From assembly GCA_012032215.1 (NCBI GenBank), contig JAAURO010000007.1:1-17195 (forward strand): a DNA stretch of 17,195 nt, in the 5' to 3' direction. The DNA comes from Limnobacter sp. GTDB taxonomy: Bacteria; Pseudomonadota; Gammaproteobacteria; Burkholderiales; Burkholderiaceae_B. This document shows, piece after piece, positions 330-16,185 of the stretch. Numbering within the stretch: position 1 is the stretch's first letter; every line of letters starts with the position of its first letter. The translations under genes were made by a program, and so were the position numbers. The notes beneath the pieces are model-generated. The model did not search any database, was not told the DNA's origin, and saw only the letters and a program-made list of their open reading frames with translations.

Positions 330-350
330 ACGGGGTTATCCAGTTTGGTC

Positions 351-373
351 GGGGGCGTTGTTGCCCCCTTTTT
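351..373 (+). terminator. Intrinsic terminator / attenuator hairpin touching the lepA start
   Basis: GGGGGC (351-356), a six-base loop GTTGTT and GCCCCC (363-368) form a perfect six-pair GC stem followed directly by five T (369-373). This is the textbook layout of a Rho-independent terminator. The T run ends one base before the first candidate lepA ATG (375). The hairpin therefore occupies the place where a Shine-Dalgarno sequence would be expected. It could end the protease transcript, attenuate lepA, or control initiation. Confidence 0.7.
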
Positions 374-374
374 A

Positions 375-2175
375 ATGATGCAGATGCAGCACATCCGTAA
401 TTTTTCCATTATTGCCCACATCGATCACGGCAAATCCACCTTGGCCGACAGGTTGATTCAACGCTGTGGTGGCTTAAGCGACCGTGAAATGAATGCGCAG
501 GTGCTTGATTCCATGGATCTAGAAAAGAGCGCGGCATCACCATTAAAGCCCAAACCGCAGCACTTACGTACAAAGCCAAAGATGGCCGCACCTATTTGCT
601 AAACCTCATCGACACCCCAGGGCACGTGGATTTTTCCTACGAGGTAAGCCGCTCGCTGTCTGCTTGCGAAGGCGCGCTGCTGGTGGTAGATGCCTCGCAA
701 GGCGTAGAGGCTCAAACCGTGGCCAACTGCTACACCGCCCTTGATTTGGGTGTAGAGGTGATTCCTGTTTTAAACAAAATGGACTTGCCCCAAGCCGATC
801 CAGACAATGCGCGTGCTGAAATTGAAGATGTAATCGGCCTGGATGCTTCTGATGCCATTGCTGCCTCAGCCAAAACCGGCATGGGCATAGACGACATTCT
901 GGAATGATAGTCGCCAAAATACCCCCTGCCAAAGGTGATCCGCAAGCTCCCTTGCAGGCCCTGATTATCGACAGCTGGTTTGATACCTACGTGGGCGTGG
1001 TCATGTTGGTACGCGTGTTCAATGGCAAGCTGCGCAAAAAAGACAAAATCCGGCTTATGGCAACCAACGCCGCCTACCCAGTCGATGAAATCGGTGTGTT
1101 CAGTCCCAAGGGCGTGCCCGTGGAAGAGCTTTCTGCCGGGCAAGTGGGCTACATTATTGCGGGCATCAAAGAGCTGACATCGGCCAAGGTGGGCGACACC
1201 GTCACTTTGGTGAATGCGTCTGCGCCTGAACCGCTACCCGGTTTTAAGGAAGTGCAATCGCAGGTGTTTGCGGGGCTTTTCCCCGTAGAAGCCAACGAGT
1301 ACGAGGCCCTGCGTGAGGCGCTTGAAAAACTGAAGCTAAACGATGCCGCCTTAAACTATGAACCCGAGGTTTCGCAGGCTTTAGGTTTTGGTTTTCGGTG
1401 CGGGTTTTTGGGCATGTTGCACATGGACATTGTGCAAGAACGCCTGGAGCGCGAATTCGACATGGACCTCATTACCACCGCACCCACGGTGGTCTACGAG
1501 GTTTTACTGCGCGATGGCACGCTGCTTGTGGTGGATAACCCTTCCAAAATGCCCGATCAAAGCAAAATCGAAGAAATCCGCGAACCCATAGTCAATGTAA
1601 ACCTGCTGATGCCCCAAGAATACGTGGGCGCGGTCATGACCCTGTGCACGGGCAAACGCGGCACACAAACCAACATGGTTTACCACGGCAGGCAGGTGCG
1701 CCTTGGTTTTGAAATGCCCATGGCCGAAATTGTGCTTGATTTTTTCGACAAACTGAAATCGGTGTCGCGCGGTTATGCGTCTATGGATTACGCATTTAAA
1801 GAATACCGACCTTCTGAAATTGTAAAGGTAGACATGCTGATTAACAGCGAGAAGGTGGATGCACTGGCTATTATGGTGCACCGTTCCAATTCGCAGTTTC
1901 GTGGGCGTGCAGTGGCCCAGAAAATGCGGGAAATTATTTCACGGCAAATGTTTGATGTGGCCATTCAGGCGGCCATTGGGTCTAATATCATTGCCCGTGA
2001 AACCGTGAAGGCCTTGCGCAAAAACGTGCTGGCAAAATGTTACGGCGGCGATATTTCACGCAAGAAAAAATTGCTTGAAAAACAAAAAGCAGGCAAAAAA
2101 CGCATGAAACAGGTGGGTAATGTGGAAATTCCACAAGAAGCCTTTCTGGCAATACTCCAGGTGGAAGACAAATAA
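375..2175 (+). CDS. lepA: Elongation factor 4 (LepA), ribosome-associated translational GTPase; two frame breaks
   Basis: LepA/EF4 is a GTPase resembling EF-G that binds the ribosome. The N-terminus [16 protein letters not shown] holds the P-loop (about residues 14-22), followed by DTPGH (G3) and NKMD (G4). The C-terminus ends in the LepA-specific tail with [19 protein letters not shown]. The frame breaks twice. One A is missing from the AAAA run at 523-526, where the family has Glu-Arg-Gly-Ile-Thr. Another A is missing at 903-904, just before an ATG that could be mistaken for a new start at 904. Restoring both gives 600 residues, the normal family length, with no other gap. As written, the pieces are 375-602, a fragment ending at 907, and 904-2175. 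The start is one of ATG 375, 378 or 384; no clear Shine-Dalgarno is visible. Both breaks are most likely sequence errors, because the protein is otherwise conserved throughout. Confidence 0.95.
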
Positions 2176-2177
2176 CA

Positions 2178-3045
2178 ATGAATCTTTTCTTTGATACTTT
2201 TTTTGCTGTTGCTGTTCACAGGCTTTTTTTACGTCCTGGATTTGGTACGTTTCAGGCCCAAACGCAGGGAAAAAGCCAGAATGGCGCTGGAAAATGCCCA
2301 GCAGCAAGGCCAGCTTAATGGCAAGGCACTGCGCAAGTTAAAAAACTTTCACCTGCGTCCGCCCGTTTGGCTGGAATACACAGCCTCCTTTTTTCCGGTT
2401 ATCCTGTTTGTTTTTTTGCTGCGCTCGTTTGTCATTGAGCCTTTTAAAATTCCTTCGGGGTCCATGATCCCCACTTTGCTGGTGGGTGACTTAATACTTG
2501 TGAATAAGTTCGATTACGGCATTCGTTTGCCAATTATTGACAAAAAAATTATTCCTGTGTCAAATCCACAGCGTGGCGATGTCATGGTGTTTCGTTATCC
2601 CAAAAATCCTAAACTGGATTACATAAAACGTGTAATCGGCGTAGGCGGGGACGTGGTTGAATACCGCAACAAGCAACTGCTGGTAAACGGCAAAAAACTG
2701 CAACAAACGCCGCTGGAAAAATACTACGATCCCACCAACTTTAGCTATTCCGCACAGTTTCGCGAGCAAATTGGCGACAAAACGCACCGTATTTTAAACG
2801 ATGAAGATGCGCCGCCCTTTGTGGTGGGCGTAGACGATTACGACTACCGTGACCAATGCAGCTACGATGTCACCGGTTTTAAATGCACCGTGCCAGAAGG
2901 GCATTATTTTATGATGGGCGACAACCGCGACAACTCCAGCGACAGCCGCATTTGGGGTTTTGTGTCTGACAGGCAAGTGGTTGGCAAGGCCTTTTTGGTG
3001 TGGATGAATTTTAGTGACCCAAGCCGTGTGGGCTTGTTTTACTGA
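2178..3045 (+). CDS. lepB: Signal peptidase I
   Basis: This is the membrane-bound Ser/Lys peptidase that removes signal peptides from exported proteins. Counting from TTG 2191, residues 1-19 form one hydrophobic segment and 64-82 a second. IPSGSMIPTL carries the nucleophile Ser91, KLDYIKRVIG carries the general base Lys146, and FMMGDNRDNSSDSR is the family's box near the C-terminus. The second half of the protein lies in the periplasm. The likely true start is ATG 2178, three bases after the lepA stop. From there the frame reads Met-Asn-Leu-Phe and breaks at a T run (2190-2192), where one T appears to be extra. Removing it gives a 288-residue protein with a complete first membrane segment. 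Otherwise initiation would have to be at TTG 2191. Pairing with lepA is the usual arrangement. Confidence 0.95.
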
Positions 3046-3052
3046 ACCAGGC

Positions 3053-3768
3053 ATGGCGGCACCACTGGAACCATTTGAATCACAACTCGGGCACCACTTT
3101 AGCAGCCGGGCGTTGTTGCAACGGGCACTGACTCACCGCAGTTACAGTGCCCAACACAACGAGCGTCTTGAGTTTTTGGGCGACAGCGTACTTAATTGTG
3201 CGGCTTCCATTCTGCTGTATCGTGAACACCCCACACTTGACGAAGGCAAGCTCTCGCGGATTCGCTCGCATTTGGTCAAACAGGATTGCCTGGCGCAAGT
3301 AGGCCGAGCCATGGATCTGCCTGCCATGCTGCTGCTGGGCGCAGGTGAAGTTAAAAGCGGTGTGCCTGCCAAAGACAGCATTGTGGCCGATGCGGTAGAG
3401 GCCGTGTTCGGCGCAGTGTTGCTGGATGCTGGCTTTGATGCAGCGTGCCAGTGCATTTTGAAACACCTGAAGCCCATTCTGGAATCGGTGCCCATTCAAT
3501 CTTTGGGCAAAGATCCGAAACCCGCCTGCAGAATAGGCTGCAAGCCAAAAAAAGCCAGCTTCCCCGTTACACCATACTGGTAGAGGGCGGAACCGCTGCC
3601 AACCCCGAGTTTAAAGTAGGCTGTGTGCTTGAAGGCACGCGTGTTGTGGCTGAAGGGGCAGGGCATTCACGCAGACTGGCTGAACAACAGGCCGCTGAAA
3701 GGGCGCTTGCTCAATTGCTGGAAGCCGATTTTTCTGATCCCAATCACACGCGAACGAGGCGCTCATGA
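3053..3768 (+). CDS. rnc: Ribonuclease III; one frame break
   Basis: RNase III cuts double-stranded RNA, including the 30S rRNA precursor. From ATG 3053 the signature ERLEFLGDSVL lies at residues 37-47, with the metal ligand Asp44. The second acidic cluster DAVEAVFGAVLLD has Glu116. Both match the E. coli active-site spacing. The C-terminal double-stranded RNA-binding domain (LPRYTILVEGG through HSRRLAEQQAAERAL) is in another frame: one A is missing from the run at 3518-3520, so the uncorrected frame ends at 3583 after a spurious tail. With that base restored the protein has 238 residues, a normal length. The gene begins seven bases after lepB and its TGA overlaps the era start as ATGA. The rnc-era pair reflects their shared role in rRNA maturation. 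Confidence 0.94.
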
Positions 3769-4678
3769 ACCCTGCACAAGCCACCCCCAATACCCGCTGT
3801 GGCGCAATAGCAGTGGTGGGGCGTCCCAACGTGGGCAAATCCACCCTGATGAATGCCCTGATTGGCGAGCACCTTTCCATTACCTCTTCCAAACCCCAGA
3901 CTACCCGCCACCGCGTGTTGGGTGTGGTTACAGAAACCGTAAAAGGCGAACACACCCAGTTTGTGTTTGTAGATACTCCGGGGTTTCAAACCCGGCACAC
4001 CAATGCCCTGAACAAAACCATGAACCGTGCGGTAACCACCGCCCTGGCCGATGTGCACGCAATTGTGTGGGTGGTAGAAGAAGGTAAGCTAGGCCCCGCA
4101 GACACCAAGGTTCTGCAACTGTGCCCACCCGATATACCGATCATTGCGGTTATTAACAAACTGGATTTGCTGAAAAACCCCAATGCCGTGTTGCCGTTTT
4201 TGGAAAAACTTTCGCACATTCACCCTTTTGCCGCCATTGTTCCGCTAAGTGCACAGGCAGGCAAAAACCTGGATGCGCTTAAAGAAGCGCTGGCCGAGCG
4301 ACTGCCCGAGCAAGCCCATTTTTACGACGAAGACATGCTGACCGACAGGCCCGAAAAGTTTTGGCAGCTGAGCGCATTCGCGAAAAACTGTTCAGGCTGG
4401 TGGGCGATGAGTTGCCTTATTCTTCCACCGTTGTTATCGACAAATTTACCGTGGAAGAGGGGCGGCGGGTTATTTACGCCACGATTTTTGTAGACCGCGA
4501 CACCCACAAAGCCATGATTATTGGCAAGGGTGGAGAAAAGCTCAAACGCATTGCCACCGAAGCCCGTATGGACATGCAGCGCCTCTTTGATGGCCCCGTC
4601 CACCTGGAAACCTGGGTCAAAGTGCGCGGTGGCTGGGCAGACAACGCCGGTGTACTCAGAAACCTGGGCTATGACTAA
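3765..4678 (+). CDS. era: GTPase Era; one frame break
   Basis: Era is an essential GTPase that binds the 3' end of 16S rRNA and monitors 30S assembly. Visible motifs are GRPNVGKST (residues 19-27), the switch II DTPGF, and NKLD. The C-terminal KH domain carries the RNA-binding loop [17 protein letters not shown]. The GTPase and KH parts are in different frames: one T is missing from TTTT at 4359-4362, where Glu-Lys-Phe-Leu-Ala-Ala-Glu-Arg is expected. The unrepaired frame runs to 4493 with unrelated residues, while the KH frame resumes at about 4361. Restoring the base gives 304 residues, which is typical. The start overlaps the rnc stop by four bases. Because Era is essential in well-studied relatives, a consensus error is far more likely than true loss. 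Confidence 0.94.
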
Positions 4679-6609: not shown

Positions 6610-7648
6610 ATGCTTGGACCTTACCTGTTTGGCATTACCGGATTCACCCTGAACGCCGACGACAAACGCCGCCTTGCAAGCCCAGAAGTGGGTGGCGTTA
6701 TTTTATTCGGCCGAAACTTTGAAAGCCCCGCGCAAGTAGCTGATTTGGTGCAGCATATACGTGCCGCGTGCCCCCGAACCCAAGCCCGTGTTTGTAGACC
6801 ACGAAGGCGGACGCGTACAGCGTTTTCGTACCGGTTTTACCGCCATACCGGCCATGCGCAGCTTGGGCAATTTGGCCGGAAAAAACTTGCCTCAAGCTTT
6901 AAAAGCAGCCCGCGCAGCCGGTTTTGTGCTGGCTTCCGAGCTGCGCGCCTGCGGCTTGGACATGAGTTTTACCCCCGTGCTGGATCTCGATTGGGGCAAC
7001 AGCGAAATTATTGGCGACCGCGCTTTTTCTGCCAACGCCGAACGGGTAGGGCTGCTGGCCGCAGCCTTAATGAATGGCCTGTTGCTGGCAGGCATGCAGG
7101 CCTGTGGCAAACACTTTCCAGGCCATGGCTGGGTAAAGCTGGACAGCCATTTGGCATTGCCGCGCGACACCCGCCCCTTAAGCGACCTGCGCCAGCACGA
7201 CCTGCAGCCTTATGCCCACAACAATTCGTTGAATATGGCCGCCATTATGCCGGCTCATGTGGTGTACGACCAGGTAGATACCTTGCCAGCCTGCTTCTCG
7301 CCATTCTGGCTGGAAGAAGAACTGCGCGGCCGCCTGAATTACGATGGCGCTATTATCAGTGATGATCTGGATATGGTAGGCGCACACAGCATGGGCGGCA
7401 TTGCCGAGCGCGCTGCGGCCGCCTTGCAGGCAGGTTGCGATGCAGTGTTGGTGTGCAACACTTTTGCCGACATGGACACCCTGCTAACCAGCCAGCTTGC
7501 GCAAGCACAGCCCAATGCCCAGCGCCACCGCAGGCTGCAACGGCTGTTGGCCCAACCCGTGCCGTGCCTGCAAAACTGGCAACAGCTACAGGCACTGCCC
7601 GATTACCAGGCCGCACTTGCCACGCTTGAATTACTCCGGAATTACTGA
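6610..7648 (+). CDS. nagZ: Beta-N-acetylhexosaminidase NagZ; one frame break
   Basis: NagZ is the cytoplasmic glycoside hydrolase family 3 enzyme that removes N-acetylglucosamine from anhydromuropeptides in cell-wall recycling. The frame from ATG 6610 gives VGGVILFGRNF, then breaks in the C run at 6771-6775, where one C appears extra. The other frame continues FVDHEGGRVQRFR, KHFPGHG (residues 167-173, with the catalytic His of the family loop), MPAHVVY and SDDLDM (about 250-255, holding the nucleophilic Asp). Removing one C gives an uninterrupted 345-residue protein of normal length. A start at 6761 in the second frame is therefore not real. The start ATG is 22 bases after the repaired acpS stop. 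This is the last gene of the plus-strand run, converging on the gene at 7707. Confidence 0.94.
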
Positions 7649-7706
7649 AGCAAATTTAATCGTGAATCGTTTGACTTTTATTTCTCTCAACTCCAGTTGC
7701 CGCGAG

Positions 7707-9455
7707 CTACTCCTTGGTTAAATTTGCCGGGGGACGGCGGTGGGCTAGCAGTTTCAGAATACAGACCTTCAGTTGATTGGCTGGTGGAGGCATTTTCACG
7801 GCTTGCTGTATCGCTGATGCGATTCTTGAGCCAGGTAAAAAAGCTCTAACCCGACCGGGGCGTTTTTCTGATGAGGGTGGAGAGTTAATACTCGGGTTAT
7901 GAGACGAGGCTTGAGACAGGGGGGGGCGTGAAGAAGAAACGGCTGTACCTGTCGGGGACGAGGGATCCCTTTGTGAGACTCTTGATAGGGGGGCTTTGCT
8001 GCTACTCTGGGAGTTTTCCCCTACTTGTATTGCAGGCAGCCGTTCCTGGGTAGCATCTGCCCCGCGAGAATTTGAAGGAGGCGTAGGAGGATTGCCGCGA
8101 AGTTTTCTAAGTGCTTCTAGCACGGCTGCAGCTCGTTTTGAAGAGATGTCTTCTGAAGTGGTGGGGCTTTGGTTGGCAGCAAGGCCAGTACGCGAGGAGC
8201 GGCGGGAGCTTCCTCTTGATGGACTTCCTGGAGGGCTTACTGAAGGGCTTACTGAAGGGCTTACTGAAGGGCTTACTGAAGAGCTTTGTGTAAAAGCACA
8301 GCTTTTATAACTCTCAACTGAAGAAGCCTCATTTCCAGCCCCCTTGTGTGCAGCCGCACCACGTTCAGAAATCGTGTATAGGGGGTTATGCATCATGAAT
8401 GGTTCTTCTTGCTTGGGTAGCAAATCTTTAAAAGCATTAACACACGCGGCGATCAGGTTTGTTCGCATTTGCGGATAGGGTAAAAATACACGTCCGGCCT
8501 GTTCTTGCTGCCGGCACGTATTGTCCAACCATTCTTTTATAAGCAATTCCAGCGCATTCTCATTTTTGGGGAAAAATGGATGTTTGGGGTGTTCAGATTT
8601 TGCATGTTCGGTAAGCACCTGACCAACCATGTCCATAAACAGCAGTGCTGGGGCTCTGCTTACACCCATTGCCGAAGTAAAGTGCCCTGTGTTGGGTTTT
8701 ATGGCCGTGCTTCTTGCTGTCGCACCACTGTCGGAGCTGTCTGGCTGGGCGTAACGCTGTTTAAAACTGTTCATGATCTGCTTGCAGCGTACCAGGTCTT
8801 CTGTAAGTAGTTCTTTGCCATCAAAAGGCGGAGCCATTTCAAGAACGGGAACCACTTTGTTGTAAGTTCCTTCTTTGTTAAATACCCTAATTTCGGCTGT
8901 AACGTACCGTATAGGGTTGTGTTCGCTTTTGGGGTGAACCGTTAAGTTATTAATTTCAAATCTTTTATTCTTTTCGGTATATGCACAAATTTCGACCCTC
9001 TGGACTTTTTCATCAGATACTAGTATTTCTTTTGCCAGCAATTGTTGAAGTGGGCTGCGATTCTTGCTGCTATTATCGATACCGCTGAACTTGCTATACA
9101 TGTCGCCCCGATTTCTTGCGGCGGCTTCCACAAAGGCAAATCCTTGGCTTCTAGTGGTAAACGTGACAAGAGGCTGCTGCTTATCCGCACAGTCTTCAAG
9201 GAGCTTTCCGATTGTTTCGAAACTTTGGTGATAATTACCAGTATTGATTGATTTATGGCCACTGAGGCTTCGCTTGGCAGGCGATGCCGGTGAGAAGCGG
9301 TCGTTTGGCGTACACAATGGTACTTCTTTGCAAACAAGGGTGTTTCCGCTGTCGGTGTGATGAGCACTGGGGCCGTCAGCTGTGCTGTGTGTGTTGCTGA
9401 AATCGGGCGCTAATGGCCTAAGCCCTGATGAACCAGGTGAGAGGGGGCCGCTCAT
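7707..9455 (-). CDS. Effector-like protein with a YopH/SptP-type tyrosine-phosphatase-like domain lacking the catalytic Cys
   Basis: I do not recognise an ortholog. The protein has 582 residues from ATG 9455, which is preceded by an AAGGAAG Shine-Dalgarno; the frame extends to TTG 9542 but that start is weaker. Residues 1-80 are rich in Ser, Pro, Thr and His and carry no signal peptide. Residues ~120-350 follow the order of a protein tyrosine phosphatase. VPVLEMAPPFDG (~202-213) matches the WPD-loop strand with Asp212 kept. HFTSAMGVSRAPALLFMD (~258-275) matches the HCxxGxxR P-loop, with Arg267 and the downstream helix Asp kept but Ser261 (TCG, 8673-8675) where the nucleophilic Cys should be. 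YPQMRTNL (~327-334) resembles the Q-loop with Gln329. The C-terminal ~200 residues are low-complexity Ser/Pro/Arg with an SVSP repeat. If the fold is right, this is a pseudophosphatase, perhaps a secreted phosphotyrosine binder. The alignment is by eye. Confidence 0.6.
   Translation of the reverse strand: MSGPLSPGSSGLRPLAPDFSNTHSTADGPSAHHTDSGNTLVCKEVPLCTPNDRFSPASPAKRSLSGHKSINTGNYHQSFETIGKLLEDCADKQQPLVTFTTRSQGFAFVEAAARNRGDMYSKFSGIDNSSKNRSPLQQLLAKEILVSDEKVQRVEICAYTEKNKRFEINNLTVHPKSEHNPIRYVTAEIRVFNKEGTYNKVVPVLEMAPPFDGKELLTEDLVRCKQIMNSFKQRYAQPDSSDSGATARSTAIKPNTGHFTSAMGVSRAPALLFMDMVGQVLTEHAKSEHPKHPFFPKNENALELLIKEWLDNTCRQQEQAGRVFLPYPQMRTNLIAACVNAFKDLLPKQEEPFMMHNPLYTISERGAAAHKGAGNEASSVESYKSCAFTQSSSVSPSVSPSVSPSVSPPGSPSRGSSRRSSRTGLAANQSPTTSEDISSKRAAAVLEALRKLRGNPPTPPSNSRGADATQERLPAIQVGENSQSSSKAPLSRVSQRDPSSPTGTAVSSSRPPLSQASSHNPSINSPPSSEKRPGRVRAFLPGSRIASAIQQAVKMPPPANQLKVCILKLLAHRRPPANLTKE
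8233..8280 (-). repeat. Four perfect tandem copies of a 12-bp unit coding SVSP
   Basis: GGGCTTACTGAA (plus strand) occurs four times in exact tandem. In the minus-strand gene each unit encodes Ser-Val-Ser-Pro, giving an (SVSP)n stretch that joins the phosphatase-like domain to the Ser/Arg-rich tail. Because the unit is a multiple of three, slippage would change tail length without breaking the frame. Confidence 0.95.
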
Positions 9456-9724
9456 GTGTTCTTCCTTAATTAATGCATCAATCAAAGAATTAGGTGGCCT
9501 GTTACACAAAAAAGTTCTTTGTTTTTTATTGTGTTTTTTCAATGGGGGGGTGGTTTTTGACTGAATTATTAACTTTTTAGAAGGAGGTATTTAAAAAAAC
9601 ATCTGCCAATTCAACCAAAAACAGGTGGTAACACAGCACAACAACAGCACAAAAACAGGACAACACAGTGCCGCCCTGTTTTTATGCACCCAAACTGCCC
9701 TCTTTTTGGGCCGAGGTGTTGCTG
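9456..9724. other. Intergenic region between the parvulin gene and the phosphatase-like gene
   Basis: This 269-bp stretch is rich in A/T and homopolymers. It contains the terminator-like hairpin at 9651-9683 and a second possible stem CCCAAA/TTTGGG at about 9690-9711. It also holds the Shine-Dalgarno of the phosphatase-like gene (AAGGAAG, read on minus, just upstream of 9455). I found no convincing -35/-10 pair and no RNA gene. Confidence 0.6.
9651..9683 (-). terminator. Probable Rho-independent terminator after the parvulin gene
   Basis: AAAAACAGG (9651-9659) and CCTGTTTTT (9675-9683) form a perfect nine-pair stem around a 15-base loop. On the minus strand, about 40 bases after the isomerase stop, the arm ends in five T. 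A second possible stem, CCCAAA/TTTGGG, lies between it and the stop codon. The stem is AT-rich, so strength is uncertain. It would separate the bolA/isomerase transcript from the downstream phosphatase-like gene. Confidence 0.5.
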
Positions 9725-10506
9725 TTATTGCACTTTGGCGTTGCTTAAAAGATCTGCCTGGTATTTTTCCCATTTCTGGGCCAACAGGCCTTCTTTTAGC
9801 TGATCTTTGACAGTATCCAAGGCGGGAGGCGTGCTGGTGCGCACATCGTTCACTAAAATAATGTGGTAACCAAACTGGCTTTTAACGGGCTGCTTGGTGT
9901 ATTTGCCTTTTTCCAGTTGCACCATGGCTTGCGAGAATTCGGGCACAAAGCTGTTGGGGTTTGCCCAGTCCAGATCGCCACCGTTTCTGGCTGAGCCGGG
10001 GTCTTTGGAATTCGCTTTGGCCAGTTCTGCAAAGCTTGCGCCTTTGTTCAGCTTGTCAATCAGCGCTTTTGCCTGCTCTTCTTTTTCCACCAGAATGTGG
10101 CTGGCGTGGTATTCCTGGCCGCCCATCATTTTGGCTATGTTGTTGTAAGCTTCCTGGAGATCAGACTCGCTGACTTCGTTTTTGGCCAGGAAGTCTTCCC
10201 GCAAGGCATTGGACAAAATAGCCTGGTTCATCATTTGCATTTGGTATTGCACGGTTTCCGTGCTGGCCAACCCTTTTTTAATGGCCTCTTGTTTCAGGAT
10301 TTCCTGGTTGACGAGTTCGCGGCGAATGGTGTCGCGAATTTCAGGGGTTTGAGGCGCACCGCGTTTGATTTGCTCGGCCACAATGTAATCAAGTAAACCA
10401 CTGGGAACAGGCTTGCCATTGACCACCGCCGCATTTTGCGCAACGGCTGGCGCATTCAGGGCCCATGTGGCAAGACAGGCAAAAAAACAGACTTTACTTT
10501 AAACAT
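9725..10506 (-). CDS. Periplasmic parvulin-type peptidyl-prolyl isomerase; frame break in signal peptide
   Basis: This is a PpiC/SurA-like rotamase that speeds proline isomerisation in exported proteins. The parvulin domain is clear: EYHASHILVEKEEQAKALI, then FAELAKANSKDPGSARNGGD, FVPEFSQAM and KSQFGYHIILVND. A helical N-terminal region with many Gln and Glu precedes it. In the printed sequence the frame has no good start; the first usable codon is GTG 10426. Adding one base to the A run at 10481-10487 connects it to ATG 10506. That yields Met-Phe-Lys-Val-Lys, a hydrophobic core and Ala-Val-Ala before Gln-Asn, a normal cleavable signal peptide, for 260 residues in total. GAGG sits upstream of that ATG. 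The start is 11 bases after the bolA stop, so the two are probably co-transcribed. Confidence 0.9.
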
Positions 10507-10517
10507 ATTCTGCAACC

Positions 10518-10861
10518 TCATGAAATAATTTGTTTTTTATTAATGGTTTTGGGGTGGGTGGTGTGGTGCTCAGTGCTCTGTTCGGTGCTCTGTTCGGTGC
10601 TCTGTTCGGTACGCTGTATGTGTATGGCCAAGGCGTGAATTTCGTGTTTCATCCAGTGGGACACGGCATCATACACCAGCCTGTGGCAGGCCAGCATGGC
10701 CAATCCTTCAAACTGTGGGCTGCCAATGCGCACCCTGAAATGCTTGCCGCCTGATTTGGCACCTTCGTGGCTGCATGCAGGTGAGATTCATCTTCAACGC
10801 ATACCGTGGCCTTAAGGGCTGACTCCAAGCGCTGTTTAAGTTGTTCGGTGCTAATGGGCAT
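10518..10861 (-). CDS. bolA: BolA family protein; one frame break
   Basis: BolA proteins partner with monothiol glutaredoxins in iron-sulfur cluster handling and affect cell shape and stress responses. The N-terminal frame reads MPISTEQLKQRLESAL and DESHLHA. The C-terminal frame reads HFRVRIGSPQFEGLAMLACHRLVYDAV and HEIHALAIH, the core with the invariant His. They join if one C is restored at about 10770-10771 (plus strand), producing the expected His-Ala-Gly-His-Glu-Gly-Ala-Lys-Ser-Gly-Gly. The corrected protein has 114 residues. The last ~25, after the IHALAI motif, are an unusual Thr/Glu/Gln/Ser tail made of the 12-bp repeat at 10573-10608, which BolA normally lacks. The gene lies between yciB and the isomerase; its start is six bases after the yciB stop. 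Confidence 0.9.
10573..10608 (-). repeat. Three perfect tandem copies of a 12-bp unit in the bolA tail
   Basis: GTGCTCTGTTCG (plus strand) is repeated three times exactly, with a partial copy to its left. In bolA it encodes a Thr-Glu-Gln-Ser repeat at the C-terminus. It is the second 12-bp in-frame repeat in the window but has no sequence relation to the one at 8233-8280. Confidence 0.95.
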
Positions 10862-10867
10862 GGGTGT

Positions 10868-11500
10868 TTAAAGCGTTTGCTTGCTGGGTGGGGTTTCTTT
10901 CAGGTGTTTGGCCATGTAAAAGCCCTGGGCCACCACAAAAATCAGGGTGGCACCTAGCGAACCAAACAGCTTGAAGTCTACCCAGATATCGGTGGAAAAA
11001 CGGTAAGCCACCACCAAGTTTAAAACACCCATAATGACAAAAAACACGCACCAGGCACAAAGCAGGTTATTCCATACAGGGCGGGGCAGTTCTACCTGGT
11101 CTTTCATCATCAGCTGGAGCGGGTTTTTGCCAAACAGGTGTGCGCCCAAAAAACCAAGCCCCATGGCCCAGTACAACACGGTGGGTTTCCATTTAATGAA
11201 GGTGGAGTCTTGTAAAACCAGGGTGGCACCGCCAAATACCACCAAAATCAAAAGGCCTATCCATTGCATTTTTTCAACCGGCCGACCCATCAGCTTTTGC
11301 AGTATGACCTGGGTAGCCGTGGCCAGTATGGCGACTACCGTGGCGGCCAGAATGGGGATTTGTTCGGTGCGCAGTTCAGCTGAGGTAAACAGACTTAGAA
11401 AAGGATCGAGCGCTGCGCGCGTGTCTTCAAGGTGCATGCCCGACCATTTGAAGGTAAGGAAAAAAAGAACGATGGGTAAAAAATCGAGCAAAAGCTTCAT
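10868..11500 (-). CDS. yciB: YciB family inner-membrane protein (intracellular septation protein A)
   Basis: The protein starts MKLLLDFLPIVLFFLTFKWSG and contains VEKMQWIGLLILVVFGGATL, FIKWKPTVLYW, PVWNNLLCAWCVFF and WVDFKLFGSLGATLIF. These are the conserved membrane segments and loops of YciB/IspA septation proteins, which sit in the inner membrane and influence envelope and division processes. It has about five or six membrane segments. At 210 residues it is some 30 longer than the E. coli protein, because of an extra stretch after the first segment (about residues 24-50). ATG 11500 fits the family start; an extension to 11620 is rejected because it overlaps the msrB end and lacks family residues. 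It lies between msrB and bolA, all on the same strand. Confidence 0.93.
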   Translation of the reverse strand: MKLLLDFLPIVLFFLTFKWSGMHLEDTRAALDPFLSLFTSAELRTEQIPILAATVVAILATATQVILQKLMGRPVEKMQWIGLLILVVFGGATLVLQDSTFIKWKPTVLYWAMGLGFLGAHLFGKNPLQLMMKDQVELPRPVWNNLLCAWCVFFVIMGVLNLVVAYRFSTDIWVDFKLFGSLGATLIFVVAQGFYMAKHLKETPPSKQTL

Positions 11501-11546
11501 GGCTGGGCCGTTTGGTGTCAGAAAGAACGAGTGGTTGAACGGAATA

Positions 11547-11954
11547 TCAGTTGTTTTTAAATGCAAGACTGGCCGAGTTGATGCAATAACGCAGCCCGGT
11601 GGGGGCTGGCCCATCTTCAAACACGTGGCCCAAATGGGCAGCGCAGTGCGTGCAGGTAACTTCTGTACGGGTTATGCCGTGACTGTGGTCGGTGTGCATG
11701 GCAATGTGTGTTGAATCCACAGGCTGAAAATAACTGGGCCAGCCGCTTCCTGAATCATACTTGCTCTCGGACGAAAATAAGGCGGTGCCGCAGCAGACGC
11801 ACGCATAAATGCCTTGTTCGTGGTGGTTCCAGTAGCGCCCGCTAAAGGCAGGTTCGGTGCCTCCCTGGCGGGCAATTCCGTATTCTTCAGGGCTTAGCTG
11901 TTTTTTCCAGTCGGCCGCGGTTTTTTGCCCGCCCTTGCTTGCTGGTTTGTTCAT
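11547..11954 (-). CDS. msrB: Peptide-methionine (R)-S-oxide reductase MsrB
   Basis: MsrB reduces methionine-R-sulfoxide in damaged proteins. The 135-residue protein shows the zinc site CVCC (Cys52, Cys55) and CTHC (Cys101, Cys104), the SGSGWPSY substrate segment, and RYCINSASL with the catalytic Cys124. No clear resolving Cys is seen in the usual upstream loop, so a Trx-independent or zinc-site recycling variant is possible. ATG 11954 is preceded on the minus strand by AAGGA at suitable distance. A longer frame up to 12122 has no family similarity and runs into the selO end. It follows selO on the same strand; both genes belong to oxidative-stress biology, which may explain the grouping. No frame break was found here. 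Confidence 0.96.
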
Positions 11955-12057
11955 GAGGGTTTTCCTTGTTGAATGGGTCAGGTGCTTTACCTGTTTTACC
12001 TTTGGGTTGCCTGTTGGCTTACTGCTTATGAGCGCATTACTTAAAGCCGCGAGGGTT

Positions 12058-13608
12058 TTACGAGGAGCAACTGACTTCCAGGTGCCGGGCCCATGGGGGT
12101 GCGGCGTTGTAGAGGTTGGCACATTCTGCTTGCTCAGTGTATGGGTCAGACACTGCCTGAAGCAATCGGTTCAATTCGGTGCAATTGCCGTGGGTTGCAC
12201 CTTCTATGGCTGTTTGCAACAAGTGGTTTCTGGGTACTACGCAAGGGTTGTGTGCCTTCAGGGCTGCTTGCCAGGCAGTGGTTTGCGTTTGCGCATTGGT
12301 GGATGGGGCAAAGTGTGCACCTACAACTTTTACATATTCAATGAGCCAGTTTTTACAATCAGTTAGCTTGTTTTCTTCATGTGATTGAACCGGAAAAAAA
12401 GCGCTGTTTTGCCAAAGTTGCCAATTGGTGTGAACATTCTCCAGCGGGGCCAGGCTTGCGAGCGACCGGAAAAACCGGGTGAAATCCAGCTGGCAGCTTT
12501 GCATGAAGTGTAGGGTATTGGCAACCAGGGTGCGCGTTGAGGCAGTAAGCGGGTTGGCATGCCCAGTTTTTGGGCAAACAAGGCTGTGTGCGTTTGTTCG
12601 AAAATCGGGCCAAATTCGCTTAAAATGTGCTCTATGGCTTCTTTTTCTTCAGGAATGAGCGGACGTATTGCCTGCGCCAGTGCGTACAGGTTCCAGTGGG
12701 CCACGCGCGGTTGGTTGCTGTAGCTGTACCGACCTTGGTGGTCGGAATGGTTGCATACGTGGTCTGGATTAAAAACATCCATGAACCCGTAAGGGCCGTA
12801 ATCGATGGTTTCGCCCAGCACCGACAGGTTGTCGGTGTTCATGACCCCGTGGCAAAACCCAATTGCTTGCCACTGCGCTACCAGTCGTGCGGTGCTTTTT
12901 ACCACGCTGGTGAGCCATTCCAGAACCTGGGTTTGAATGGGCTGTCGAGCTTTGGTGGGTTTTGAATACCAAGCCCCAATGCCAGGTGCTTCATATGCCA
13001 TTCCAGCAAAGTGTGCAGTTCGACAAGCCGGTTTTGGCTGGCAAAAACTCAAAATGCCCAAAGCGCAAAAAGCTCTGGCTAACCCGGCACACAATGGCTG
13101 CGGTTTCGGTGGTTTCGCGTTGAACGGGGTCTGCGCTGCCCGTCAGACTTAAAGCCCGCGTGGTGGGTATGCCCAGCGCGTGCATGGCTTCCGATGCTAC
13201 GTACTCGCGAATAGAGGAACGCAACACTGCCCGGCCATCTCCCATGCGGGAAAAGGGCGTTTGACCTGCGCCCTTAAGCTGCAATTGCCGGTAGCGTGTG
13301 CCGCTGCGTAATTCTGCAATCAAGAGGGCGCGTCCGTCTCCGAGTTGCGGCACAAACACACCAAACTGGTGACCGCAATACACGCTGGCTTGGGCAGGGT
13401 ATTGGGGCAGGCTTTGGCTGCCTGCCAACACAGTAAGCCCGGCCAGGCTTTGCCACCAATCGGGGTTCAGGCCAATTTGCTGCGCCAACACGGTGTTAAA
13501 GCACAGCAACCGGGGTGTTTGTGCCAAGGGCGTGGGGGGCGTTGGCACCAAAAAAGGCTTGCCCAACGCGGTGTATTCCCGCACCAAAAGGGTGTTTTCT
13601 TCAAGCAA
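12058..13608 (-). CDS. selO: Protein adenylyltransferase SelO (YdiU); three frame breaks
   Basis: SelO is a pseudokinase-fold enzyme that transfers AMP from ATP to Ser/Thr/Tyr of proteins and is linked to redox control. Motifs in order are [25 protein letters not shown] with the ATP Lys, [34 protein letters not shown] with the two Arg, HGVMNTDN and [10 protein letters not shown] with the metal Asn and Asp, [12 protein letters not shown], and the C-terminal LEVSCSS. They fall in three frames. One T appears missing opposite A run 13043-13047, a second base near 12957-12963 and a third near 12549-12556. With these restored the protein is ~517 residues, as expected. As written, fragments end at 12991 and 12363, and the last frame ends at 12058. 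The start (TTG 13608) is uncertain. The breaks are probably sequence errors, although three in one gene leave real decay possible. Confidence 0.9.
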
Positions 13609-13631
13609 AGTGTGTATTTTCCCTGGTTTTT

Positions 13632-13693
13632 ATGATCACCGCTGTGGTTCTCAACAGCCCTGGCAGCACAAAGCCGGTAAAACAGAGGCTCCC
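13632..13693 (-). repeat. Possible degraded remnant of the same inverted-repeat element
   Basis: CAGAGGCTCCCTA at 13684-13696 repeats the right end of the 160-bp element at 13962-14121, including the junction with a CTAR-type target. About 50 bases to the left, TGATCACCGCTGTGG (13633-13647) resembles the element's left interior TGATCAACCCGCTGTGG with two bases missing. The TAG stop of the SelO-like gene lies inside this end. It may be a decayed or solo copy between the SelO-like gene and selO; the interior is not alignable by eye. Confidence 0.35.
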
Positions 13694-16185
13694 TAAGTAC
13701 TCCGTGTGTCTGAAACAAGTGCATCGAGTTCTTGCGCATCTGGCACTGCAAACACATAACCAGACAAAGTTTTATGTGGTGTGTTTGTTGAGCCAATCAA
13801 CAATTGTCCTTTAACTTGCCCAATGCAGTATGGCTGCACTTCTACAGAAAAAGTCAGTGTTTCGCCTGCATTATCTAGCTTGCCTTGCACCACGAGAGGT
13901 TTTTCAGAAGAGTCTATGCTTAGTTGCAACACCGCATTGGAAAAATCAGCATCTCCACTAGGGAACCTCTGATCAACCCGCTGTGGCGCATATTTGGTGG
14001 ATTCGGGCGCGAGCGCCTTGCAAAATGCTCGCGAGATCGCTTGATATCACTGCGCTTTTTGCAAGGCGCTGGCATCCCGACTTCCCTCAAATCTGCATCC
14101 ACGGAGTTAATCAGAGGCTCCCTAGAGTGCTCAAGAGGATTTTGCTTGCTCAGTGTATTGGTTTGAAAGCTGACCACTAAATGCCGGTCGCCATTTTCAT
14201 GAACATGAATTGCATAATTTGTGCCATTGATCACTGCTTTTTGTATTTCAAGGTGGTCTTGAAAAACATGGATAGATCCTTGTTTTAGGATTGCATCCAC
14301 ATTTCGGATTGACTCAGCAATCAGTTCATCTATGGTGGTTTTTATCAAATCAGCGCAGTCGGATTTTTCATATTTTGGAATAATTTCATCCAAATAATTG
14401 CGCAAGTTGAAGCGAATTAATCTATCGATGGGTTTGTTTTCAAACTCAGCTCTTTTTAACATGGATTGCATGCACTGCTCTTTGGTTGCAAAAAAGCCCT
14501 CTTGTACACCAATGGTTTGAATTGTCTCAATCACACGAGGGTACAGGTCTGAGAAATCCTGTGCAAATTGTTCCACCACTTTTTTGGCGTCTTCGGAGGT
14601 TTTGCAGTAGTAATTCTTGAATTTGTGTGTGCTTGAATTGTCAGTACCAGAGGTGGAGGATTCTGGTTCCTTCTCGCGCCAGCTTCGTACAGCAGATTGG
14701 TCATCGTATTCTGGGTGGAGTAAAGTTTTTACTGTATCGGGTGAAATATACCCGTCTTCCAAGGCTTTCGGAGCCATTGCAAGCAAATTAAAAATATCTA
14801 CAACTGAAGTTTTGCTGGTATCGGTTTGCTTTACATCTAAAGAGCCATTGTTGTAAAACTTGCTCACATGCATCAACAGCTTCCTGAATTGTTTGGCAAG
14901 CTCTGGTTGTTGGTGTTCTACGGCAATGGCCAATTTTCAGCAATTCCGCAGGCGCGCAGCATCTCCACTGTTTTGTAGTGGGAATAATACTTTTTATACA
15001 GTTGTTCAATGCCTTCGTATTTCATCCGTGCTAGCAACGCGTGGCGGTTTTTGGCTTCTATGCGAAACATGTAATCAACAAAAGAGCCCATTTTTTGAAT
15101 TTTCTCATCGTTCATACCATGCACTGGAGCAGTGCGGCTCTGGGTGCTGGTGTAATCATGATCCAGCATTTGCCCGTACAGGCCATTGTTAGAATCAGCC
15201 AAAACACCATGAAGTATGCGCCAGCGCAATTGCTGAGCTGCAGTGCGGGCGTGCCCTTGAGCCATGGCGTTGGCTTGTTCTTCCTGAGGTAAGCAGGAAA
15301 TAGCAGATAGACGATCTCTGTCAAATTCGGGTTCCCATATTTTGGGATCCTTTACTGGTGTGGTAACAATGGTGGCATGCGCTGGCCGGATATGGTTGCC
15401 ATAGCGCACTACCAGTGCTTGTGGCTGCTTCTGTTTCTCGTCTTTAACTTTGTCGCCAACATCTATGATTGCCAATACTCGTGTTCCACCCTGCGATAGC
15501 AGATGGTGCGACAAATGCCCCATGCATGCTTCTACAATGGCTTCACACAATGGGCAGGTGCCGGGGTTTTCGTAGGGTGGCTTGGCACGGTTGAGTGCCA
15601 ATTTGGTAACCCCTGCCCCTTTAATGCAAACCTGATCCACATAAATTGCGCGCCCATCTCCTTTTGATTTGTGATCTGTATAGAAGGTGGCGTAAGTTGA
15701 AACGTATTTTGAAGTGGGGGTGTTGGTAAAGGGGGTTCGAGCGGGGGTTCTAGCGGAAAAATCGTTTTGAGCGAAAATTTTTCAATTAGCTGTGCATGAA
15801 GTTCTTCAGTCATCCGGTTTTCTGGCGACACTGAGAATCCAAACTTTCTTGCTGCTTCGTAATCTACCCACAATACCGTACCCGGAACTCTTTCGGCGGG
15901 CACGTCAGTCACAGAAGAATCAGGTAATATGGTTTTAACAGATTGTGTGGCATGCTGTTGCGTTGCTCTTTCCAACGGTGTCAGAGCACAAGGTAGTTGG
16001 CTTTGTGAGGGGCATACGCTGACAGGAAAACCAATATTTCCCAAGTTACTTTGTAATAATTCGTTGATAAGTGCCTTCACTGCCCGTATAGAAGGGGCGG
16101 CCTGCTGGCTTTCTGGGGTGCTGCTATGTGGGAAGCCCGATTTTTCTGTGCTATACGCAGGGGTGGTGCAAGAAGAGGTTTCCAT
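13693..16185 (-). pseudogene. Divergent SelO-like pseudokinase/AMPylase, disrupted by a small mobile element and two frame breaks
   Basis: The SelO family is recognised from ordered motifs. In corrected numbering these are GDGRAIYVDQVCIKGAG (176-192, Lys189), AIVEACM (Glu219), VVRYGNHIRPAH (Arg261, Arg267) and HGVLADSNNGLYGQMLD (326-342). The last aligns with HGVMNTDN...ID of SelO, keeping Asn333 and Asp342 while the presumed catalytic base is Ser332. A CPLC...C..H cluster (211-228) replaces the SelO loop before helix C. Residues 1-100 are Ser/Thr/Pro-rich without a signal peptide. ATG 16185 is chosen over TTG 16215. Two single bases seem missing, at G run 15716-15720 and near 14931-14936. 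An inserted element (13962-14121) cuts the gene ~80 codons before its end; as printed, translation runs through it and stops at 13920. Without these lesions the protein is ~776 residues. It lies 84 bases upstream of selO, suggesting duplication and divergence. Substrate unknown. Confidence 0.7.
13962..14121. mobile_element. 160-bp MITE-like element with inverted ends and CTAG target duplication
   Basis: The left end GGAACCTCTGATCAAC (13962-13977) and the right end, read in reverse complement, GGAGCCTCTGATTAAC (14106-14121) match at 14 of 16 bases. CTAG flanks both sides (13958-13961 and 14122-14125). An internal perfect inverted repeat AGCGCCTTGCAAAA (14012-14025) / TTTTGCAAGGCGCT (14057-14070) would let the whole unit fold into a long hairpin. 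No transposase is encoded, so it needs a partner element in trans. A CTAG duplication fits the YTAR-type targets of the IS5 group as I know them, but the family is unproven. Removing 164 bp (element plus one CTAG) restores the SelO-like frame exactly, which shows it landed in a coding gene. Confidence 0.85.

What the first reader, a model, noticed from the sequence alone, without database searches (positions are those of the whole stretch)
13693..16185. A strongly diverged SelO paralog sits directly upstream of ordinary selO
Seen: motifs equivalent to the SelO Lys, Glu, paired Arg, Asn and Asp positions occur in the correct order (Lys189, Glu219, Arg261/Arg267, Asn333, Asp342). The residue matching the SelO catalytic Asp is Ser332, the Arg-Arg spacing is one residue shorter, and the C-terminal Cys-Ser-Ser is absent. 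Known: SelO pseudokinases AMPylate proteins with an inverted ATP. Inferred: duplication followed by change of substrate or activity, with a Ser/Thr/Pro-rich N-terminal extension and a ~350-residue C-terminal extension. I know of no described subfamily with this layout.
Basis: partly seen in the sequence, partly recalled or inferred. Interest (0 to 1): 0.8.

Follow-up and report, generated by a model that had tools for sequence, protein, structure and literature searches.

The report
Orphan third branch of SelO proteins
Next to a normal selO gene lies a real but very distant relative of the SelO protein-modifying enzymes, closest by profile to the microcin-maturation enzyme MchC but without MchC's usual partner gene, in a bacterium that also has an injection system, so it may be a stand-alone AMP-transferring protein with a new job.

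Summary
The frame-broken minus-strand gene at 13693-16185 encodes a SelO-superfamily domain: a profile of it and its own-genome paralog (contig C149) matches a SelO profile at 98.2% probability, E 3.9e-14, and only SelO structures in the PDB below E 0.001. The six SelO ATP-pocket residues are kept. The origin story is not supported: in trees it lies outside all sampled SelO and outside the MchC/MceJ microcin-maturation clade, while profiles place it nearer MchC. An HlyC-type partner gene lies beside or one gene from 9 of 10 MchC-like genes opened; none was found in the held 66% of this genome. Searches of partly overlapping sets of 59, 398, 368, 267 and 397 other genomes gave no close homolog. 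The genome has a non-flagellar type III secretion system, and the same contig carries a member of a multicopy phosphatase-like family. Best reading: a stand-alone SelO/MchC-fold AMP transferase, possibly a secreted effector. Structure prediction failed; pocket geometry and activity are untested.

The parts
15535..16185 (-). N-terminal piece from the METSS start: Ser/Thr/Pro-rich first part, then a stretch that resembles the MchC N-terminus only faintly; frame break where it overlaps the next piece
   Evidence: STPNQ 48% of the first 50 residues; 1.9 and 1.7 bits against two MchC-type profiles, not significant
14921..15781 (-). SelO/MchC-like core piece, 287 aa open frame; carries GDGR, KGAG, TRVLAI, RxxxxxRPAH, RWRILHG, SN and D motifs
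15620..15622 (-). Lys equivalent to SelO Lys113
   Evidence: core residue 54; SelO numbering from PMC8097203
15530..15532 (-). Glu equivalent to SelO Glu136
   Evidence: core residue 84
15386..15406 (-). Arg pair equivalent to SelO Arg176/Arg183, spacing 6, followed by Pro-Ala-His
   Evidence: core residues 126 and 132
15161..15193 (-). Ser-Asn ... Asp: Asn and Asp equivalent to SelO Asn253/Asp262; the residue before Asn is Ser, as in C149 and 3 of 4 MchC-like rows
   Evidence: core residues 197, 198, 207
13923..14936 (-). C-terminal piece, similar only to the C-terminal piece of the C149 paralog; its last part reads into the inserted repeat
   Evidence: (23% identity, E 7.6e-5 to C149), (no PDB match; no SelO or MchC similarity)
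13958..14125 (.). inserted palindromic MITE-like repeat with terminal inverted repeats; blastn matches at 11 other loci held from this genome
13693..13957 (-). last part of the C-terminus beyond the repeat, in another frame; its GYVFAVP...EL end resembles the C149 end KYHFAVP...EL (by eye)
12058..13608 (-). ordinary selO, broken into three frames

Best explanation
The gene encodes a large protein, roughly 750-800 residues by span, built around a protein-kinase-fold domain of the SelO superfamily that belongs to a third, HlyC-less branch lying between SelO and MchC/MceJ. Shown by sequence: homology to SelO and MchC; retention of all six residues that in SelO hold an inverted ATP and Mg; loss of the SelO TDN motif and C-terminal Cys; a C-terminal region found only in one paralog of the same genome; no HlyC partner found. 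Inferred: the domain binds ATP with its phosphates buried and transfers AMP to a hydroxyl or carboxyl of a protein or peptide, acting alone rather than with an HlyC-type acyltransferase. Inferred more weakly: it is one of a lineage-specific set of effector-like proteins exported by the type III secretion system of this genome, with the Ser/Thr/Pro-rich N-terminus as export signal and the C-terminal region for target binding. The window copy carries a repeat insertion near its 3' end and may be decaying.
For: Profile-profile homology: SelO 98.2% and MchC 99.0% probability; PDB hits below E 0.001 only to SelO; core alone 26.9 bits SelO and 42.3 bits MchC, reported shuffles at most 1.9; best plasmid matches of C149 are three MchC-like genes, then eight haloarchaeal SelO. 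Six pocket residues invariant, their roles in SelO from PMC8097203. Outside both clades in three trees. HlyC beside or one gene from MchC-like genes in 9 of 10 loci opened, no PF02794 match in the own genome. Paralog C149. Type III secretion genes on contig C93. A member of a multicopy effector-like family on the same contig. GC 0.43-0.49 over the gene against 0.50-0.57 over most of the rest.
Against: No structure: both AF2 runs failed (pLDDT 32.9 and 34.9). No activity data. In the full tree the window core joins the SelO side and C149 the MchC side (both 92/89), and the nearest rows of the window core by path are SelO, so their kinship with each other and with MchC is unsettled (window plus C149 as one clade neither rejected nor shown, p-AU 0.121). 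The MchC profile is biased: two of its seven rows were found with the query's own profile and five with one of those two. Export is circumstantial: the gene is not next to the secretion genes, no TTCG-N16-TTCG box lies upstream, and its N-terminal composition (48% STPNQ) is close to the msrB (44%, possibly mis-started) and era (40%) readings. GC is also 0.46-0.48 around lepB and the PPIase gene. The genome is 66% complete, so an HlyC gene could be missing, and C149 starts at a contig end. The window copy may be a pseudogene.
Confidence: 0.45

Rival explanations
1. A diverged MchC/MceJ-type bacteriocin maturation enzyme whose HlyC partner and peptide gene lie elsewhere in the missing third of the genome or were lost; it would activate the C-terminus of a peptide for attachment of a small molecule.
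For: Closer to MchC than to SelO by profile; shares the longer Lys-Glu insert with all four MchC-like rows, Ser before Asn with 3 of 4 and RPAH with 2 of 4; MchC genes are variable and sit on islands (PMC3281104).
Against: No PF02794 match in the held genome; no HlyD or C39 exporter seen in the 17-kb contig (my reading; not every ORF was searched); outside the MchC clade at 98-99 support, the window core even on the SelO side in the full tree; C-terminal piece with no MchC similarity.
Confidence: 0.25
2. A tandem duplicate of the adjacent selO that diverged fast.
For: Adjacent and on the same strand; SelO homology; 27% identity to a selO piece in a three-way alignment; SelO side of the full tree.
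Against: Outside the whole sampled SelO clade including two archaeal and an actinobacterial row; higher score to MchC; the paralog is on another contig; 0 of 15 genus relatives have such a gene near selO.
Confidence: 0.08
3. A catalytically dead scaffold or a decaying pseudogene of mobile origin, with the kept residues being residual.
For: Repeat insertion in the 3' part, frame breaks, orphan distribution, long branches.
Against: Housekeeping genes in the same window are broken in the same way, so the breaks are probably errors; six pocket residues survive in two paralogs about 31-34% identical, which points to past selection on both.
Confidence: 0.22

Closest known systems
MchC / MceJ, microcin H47 / E492 maturation proteins (distant SELO subfamily, PMC3281104)
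   Same: Best profile match; KGxG followed by a longer Lys-Glu insert; Ser before Asn in 3 of 4 and RPAH in 2 of 4 MchC-like rows; pocket residues kept.
   Different: No HlyC-type partner found; outside the MchC clade; N-terminal Ser/Thr/Pro-rich stretch and a C-terminal region without MchC similarity.
SelO / YdiU protein adenylyltransferase (PF02696)
   Same: Homologous domain with Lys, Glu, Arg, Arg, Asn and Asp in order; GDGRA and KGAG motifs.
   Different: Not called by the SelO models; TDN motif and C-terminal Cys absent; outside the SelO clade.
Type III effector kinases and pseudokinases in general (group recalled; review PMC9950578 seen by passages)
   Same: Lineage-restricted protein with a paralog and a kinase-like domain in a genome with a type III secretion system.
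   Different: No export or translocation shown. I recall no SelO-fold type III effector; the lists (30 of 46 papers; 6 of 6; 2 of 2; 12 of 75) name none in titles or abstract starts, but few of those papers were opened.

Membership tests
SelO (PF02696, NF040880) | Score over the curated family cut-off | tested here: not met
   Window core: no PF02696 match at E up to 10; C149 17.9 bits against cut-off 22.8
SelO (PF02696, NF040880) | Profile-level homology over the kinase-like core | tested here: met
   hhalign 98.2% probability, E 3.9e-14; PDB SelO hits E about 7e-4
SelO (PF02696, NF040880) | ATP-pocket Lys, Glu, Arg, Arg, Asn, Asp | tested here: met
   roles from PMC8097203
SelO (PF02696, NF040880) | HGVMNTDN-type motif and C-terminal Cys | tested here: not met
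   HGVLADSN in the window, HGSVNESN in C149; no C-terminal Cys
SelO (PF02696, NF040880) | Branches inside the SelO clade | tested here: not met
   Outside at 97-100 support in three trees, long-branch caveat
SelO (PF02696, NF040880) | AMP transfer with inverted ATP | not testable with these tools
   needs protein; AF2 models failed
MchC/MceJ | Closest profile is MchC | tested here: met
   42.3 against 26.9 bits (window), 59.8 against 32.1 bits (C149); hhalign 99.0% against 98.2%; the MchC set was gathered with the query's own profile and its hits
MchC/MceJ | Branches inside the MchC clade | tested here: not met
   MchC plus Sphingomonas rows form their own side at 98-99 support
MchC/MceJ | Neighbouring HlyC-type acyltransferase (MchD/MceI) | tested here: not met
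   9 of 10 MchC-like loci opened have one; this genome has no PF02794 match, but it is 66% complete
MchC/MceJ | Peptide conjugation activity | not testable with these tools
   biochemistry
Type III secretion effector | Genome encodes a non-flagellar type III secretion system | tested here: met
   SctR over its cut-off; SctN, SctT, SctU and the first SctV piece score better than the flagellar models though under their cut-offs; SctQ about tied with FliN
Type III secretion effector | N-terminal export signal | tested here: inconclusive
   48% STPNQ in the first 50 residues; of 11 other readings in the window msrB has 44% and era 40%
Type III secretion effector | Secretion or translocation | not testable with these tools
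   needs an isolate

The most novel reading that the evidence does not exclude
A third branch of the SelO superfamily has been recruited as a type III secreted AMP transferase (or transferase of another ATP-derived group) that modifies proteins of a eukaryotic, perhaps protist, host, working alongside a multicopy family of cysteine-less phosphatase-like effectors in the same lineage.
Probability: 0.25. Interest if true: 0.75.

Novelty: new variant of a known kind. Interest (0 to 1): 0.5.

Why it matters
SelO AMPylates proteins, and MchC helps join a siderophore to a peptide; how one fold serves both is open. A branch that sits between them, keeps the ATP pocket, drops the SelO TDN motif and apparently works without an HlyC partner is a direct test of which residues and partners set the chemistry. 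If exported, it would add a SelO-type fold to the list of effector enzymes.

Tried and rejected
Rejected: chance motif matching (reported shuffles at most 1.9 bits); recent tandem duplicate of selO; defence gene (no PADLOC hit); RNA-linked element (no tRNA, no Rfam match in the window). One PHROG hit for C149 (phrog_24437, unknown function, E 7.9e-6) was not followed. No TTCG-N16-TTCG box with up to one mismatch lay within 250 bases upstream of 7 starts examined (119 bases for L106).

Led nowhere: AF2 of the core with four relatives, twice (pLDDT 32.9 and 34.9), so no fold search was run; genome-contig scan with the window core alone (no relative) and with A3 (4 loci, 2 MchC-like Sphingomonas and 2 ordinary SelO); viral contigs (none); plasmid blastn (of 42 records 20 were listed, annotated matches there are SelO/YdiU); C-terminal pair against the PDB (none); DUF5638 at E 0.09 for the C-terminal piece, taken as chance. 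I searched papers for Limnobacter on a guess about the genus; no call names the genus.

Dropped or unopened: of 65 loci offered for the SelO profile the 53 that carried both motifs were used; the main tree used 26 of these 53. L096 and L097 were left out of the two check trees as long branches. L107 was left out of the phosphatase-like alignment because it lies in two pieces. Of the 21 plasmid records, 5 were opened. L100 and L117 (under 36 bits) were not examined.

Full report
What was checked. Minus-strand open pieces at 16239-15535, 15781-14921, 14936-13923 and 14046-13696 cover the finding. Frame breaks also cut lepA, rnc, era, nagZ (gene names by my reading), selO and an SctV/FlhA-type gene on contig C93, so they are more likely assembly errors than decay. 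I kept the pieces apart throughout.

Is it a SelO relative? Yes. Pfam does not call it. A search of the own genome found a paralog on contig C149: 31% identical over the core, E 4.8e-15, and 23% over the C-terminal piece, E 7.6e-5. That paralog gives a sub-threshold SelO hit in the right register (17.9 bits, E 0.0014). A two-sequence profile hits only SelO structures in the PDB below E 0.001 (6k20, 6iii, 9jym; E about 7e-4; the next hits are AbiK at E 0.98). Profile-profile comparison gives 98.2% probability to SelO. The core alone scores 26.9 bits against a profile of 53 SelO sequences; the best reported shuffle is 1.8 (120 of 200 shuffles gave any line). In Pseudomonas syringae SelO these are Lys113, Glu136, Arg176, Arg183, Asn253 and Asp262, which hold an inverted ATP and Mg; the same review says that SelO itself already lacks the HRD Asp (PMC8097203, section read). 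So Ser in place of the Asp of TDN is a real difference, but not loss of the assigned base.

Which branch? MchC/MceJ proteins, which act in attaching a siderophore to microcins, were described as a distant SELO subfamily with an HlyC-type partner (PMC3281104, section 11 read). A profile of seven MchC-like proteins scores the window core at 42.3 bits and C149 at 59.8, against 26.9 and 32.1 for SelO. That set is not independent: two rows came from the query's own profile and five from a search with one of these two. In a plasmid search C149 itself finds 11 records: three MchC-like genes first, then eight haloarchaeal SelO. Window and C149 share with the four MchC-like rows a longer insert between KGxG and the Glu (all four), Ser before Asn (three; Gly in L025) and RPAH (L025 and L026 only). 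Against a simple MchC kinship: in the full tree C149 joins the MchC side and the window core the SelO side (92/89 each), and a clade of the two is neither rejected nor shown (p-AU 0.121). End branches exceed 3 changes per column, so the placement is unsure. I therefore speak of a third branch, possibly two.

Context. An HlyC-type gene lies beside, or in L020 one gene away from, 9 of 10 MchC-like genes opened: L020, L021, L025, L026, L093, L094, L095, L097 and L116 do; L096 does not by Pfam, though it has a C39 exporter. The window gene sits between selO and a stretch I read as a ygfZ-like gene; PF02794 has no match in the held genome. C149 starts at a contig end, so its upstream side is unknown. 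Sixteen of 16 genus members have selO; 12 of the 15 relatives have msrB within 1.5 kb of it, and none shows any piece of the SelO-like gene there. Searches for further members found none that scores like the two paralogs: 59 other genomes with the C-terminal piece, 398 of the order, 368 of the class with a broader profile at E 1e-12, 267 of the family at E 1e-6 and 397 of the phylum at E 1e-7; the sets overlap. In the order search 92 of 399 genomes matched at E 0.001, in large part frames of about 500 aa that I take for ordinary SelO; the best, L025 and L026, are MchC-like, as is L116. L100 and L117 (under 36 bits) were not examined.

Secretion context. Contig C93 carries non-flagellar type III genes: SctR over its curated cut-off; SctN, SctT, SctU and the first SctV piece better matched by type III than by flagellar models though under the cut-offs; SctQ about tied with FliN. 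All 16 genus members match the SctV model and 4 of 16 are over its cut-off; two score classes (about 670-790 and about 600 bits) suggest SctV and FlhA (my inference). The ORF at 7707-9542 in the same window belongs to a multicopy family (6 matches in one relative, 2 in this genome, 0 in the other 14) with a loop FSSAxGxxRS like a tyrosine-phosphatase loop without its Cys; the five best PDB profile hits are SHP-1 chains at E 0.049 to 0.67, none significant, and Pfam gives no phosphatase match. Its N-terminus and that of the SelO-like gene have 44% and 48% STPNQ, but among 11 other readings msrB has 44% and era 40%. GC is 0.43-0.49 over the SelO-like gene and 0.50-0.57 over most of the rest, but also 0.46-0.48 around lepB and the PPIase gene.

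Insertion. A repeat of about 168 bp at 13958-14125, itself an imperfect palindrome, matches 11 other held own-genome loci, five of them within a few bases of a contig end. The C149 contig shows no such match (L019), and its gene ends with a similar FAVP...EL stretch (by eye). The window copy therefore carries an insertion in its 3' part and may be truncated.

Mechanism. Shown: homology, pocket residues, branch position with caveats, absence of an HlyC gene in what is held. Inferred: ATP binding and AMP transfer, by analogy with SelO. Weakly inferred: export by the type III system. I put AMP- or nucleotide-transfer chemistry of an intact copy at about 0.6, and export at about 0.3.

Literature. 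Seen: PMC3281104 (section 11 and passages), PMC8097203 (one section and passages), and passages of PMC10364804, PMC12599244, PMC6071977, PMC9950578 and PMC7472721. The search for MchC with SelO listed two papers, PMC3281104 and a clinical one. The lists, several of them capped, showed me no HlyC-less third branch in titles or abstract starts; the library lacks most subscription papers.

Noticed in passing
window 7707-9542 (-); L103-L109: Multicopy family with a tyrosine-phosphatase-like loop in which Cys is replaced (FSSAxGxxRS): 2 matches in this genome, 6 in one genus relative, 0 in 14 others; PDB hits to SHP-1 are not significant (best E 0.049). Possible pseudophosphatase effectors.
   Followed up: partly
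window 13958-14125; L005-L011, L013-L015, L114: Palindromic MITE-like repeat of about 168 bp at 11 other own-genome loci, five of them at contig ends, so it probably breaks the assembly.
   Followed up: partly
L114 (G000:C93) 6893-15742: Non-flagellar type III secretion gene cluster; beside sctU on the other strand an ORF that looks leucine-rich-repeat-like by eye, without a Pfam match.
   Followed up: partly
window 345-2175, 3014-3768, 3765-4678, 6610-7648, 12058-13608: Several housekeeping genes broken into frames, which points to indel errors in the assembly.
   Followed up: partly
L020, L021 (Sphingomonas): MchC-like gene with an HlyC-type gene nearby in two Sphingomonas records, in L020 also a C39 peptidase exporter and a 2OG-Fe oxygenase domain.
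   Followed up: partly
L093, L095 (Vibrio and Photobacterium plasmids): HlyC-type gene, SelO-family gene, glycosyltransferase, small protein, radical SAM and HlyD in the same order: a bacteriocin-like cassette.
   Followed up: no
window 10560-10619: Head-to-tail copies of a 12-base unit (GGTGCTCTGTTC-like).
   Followed up: no
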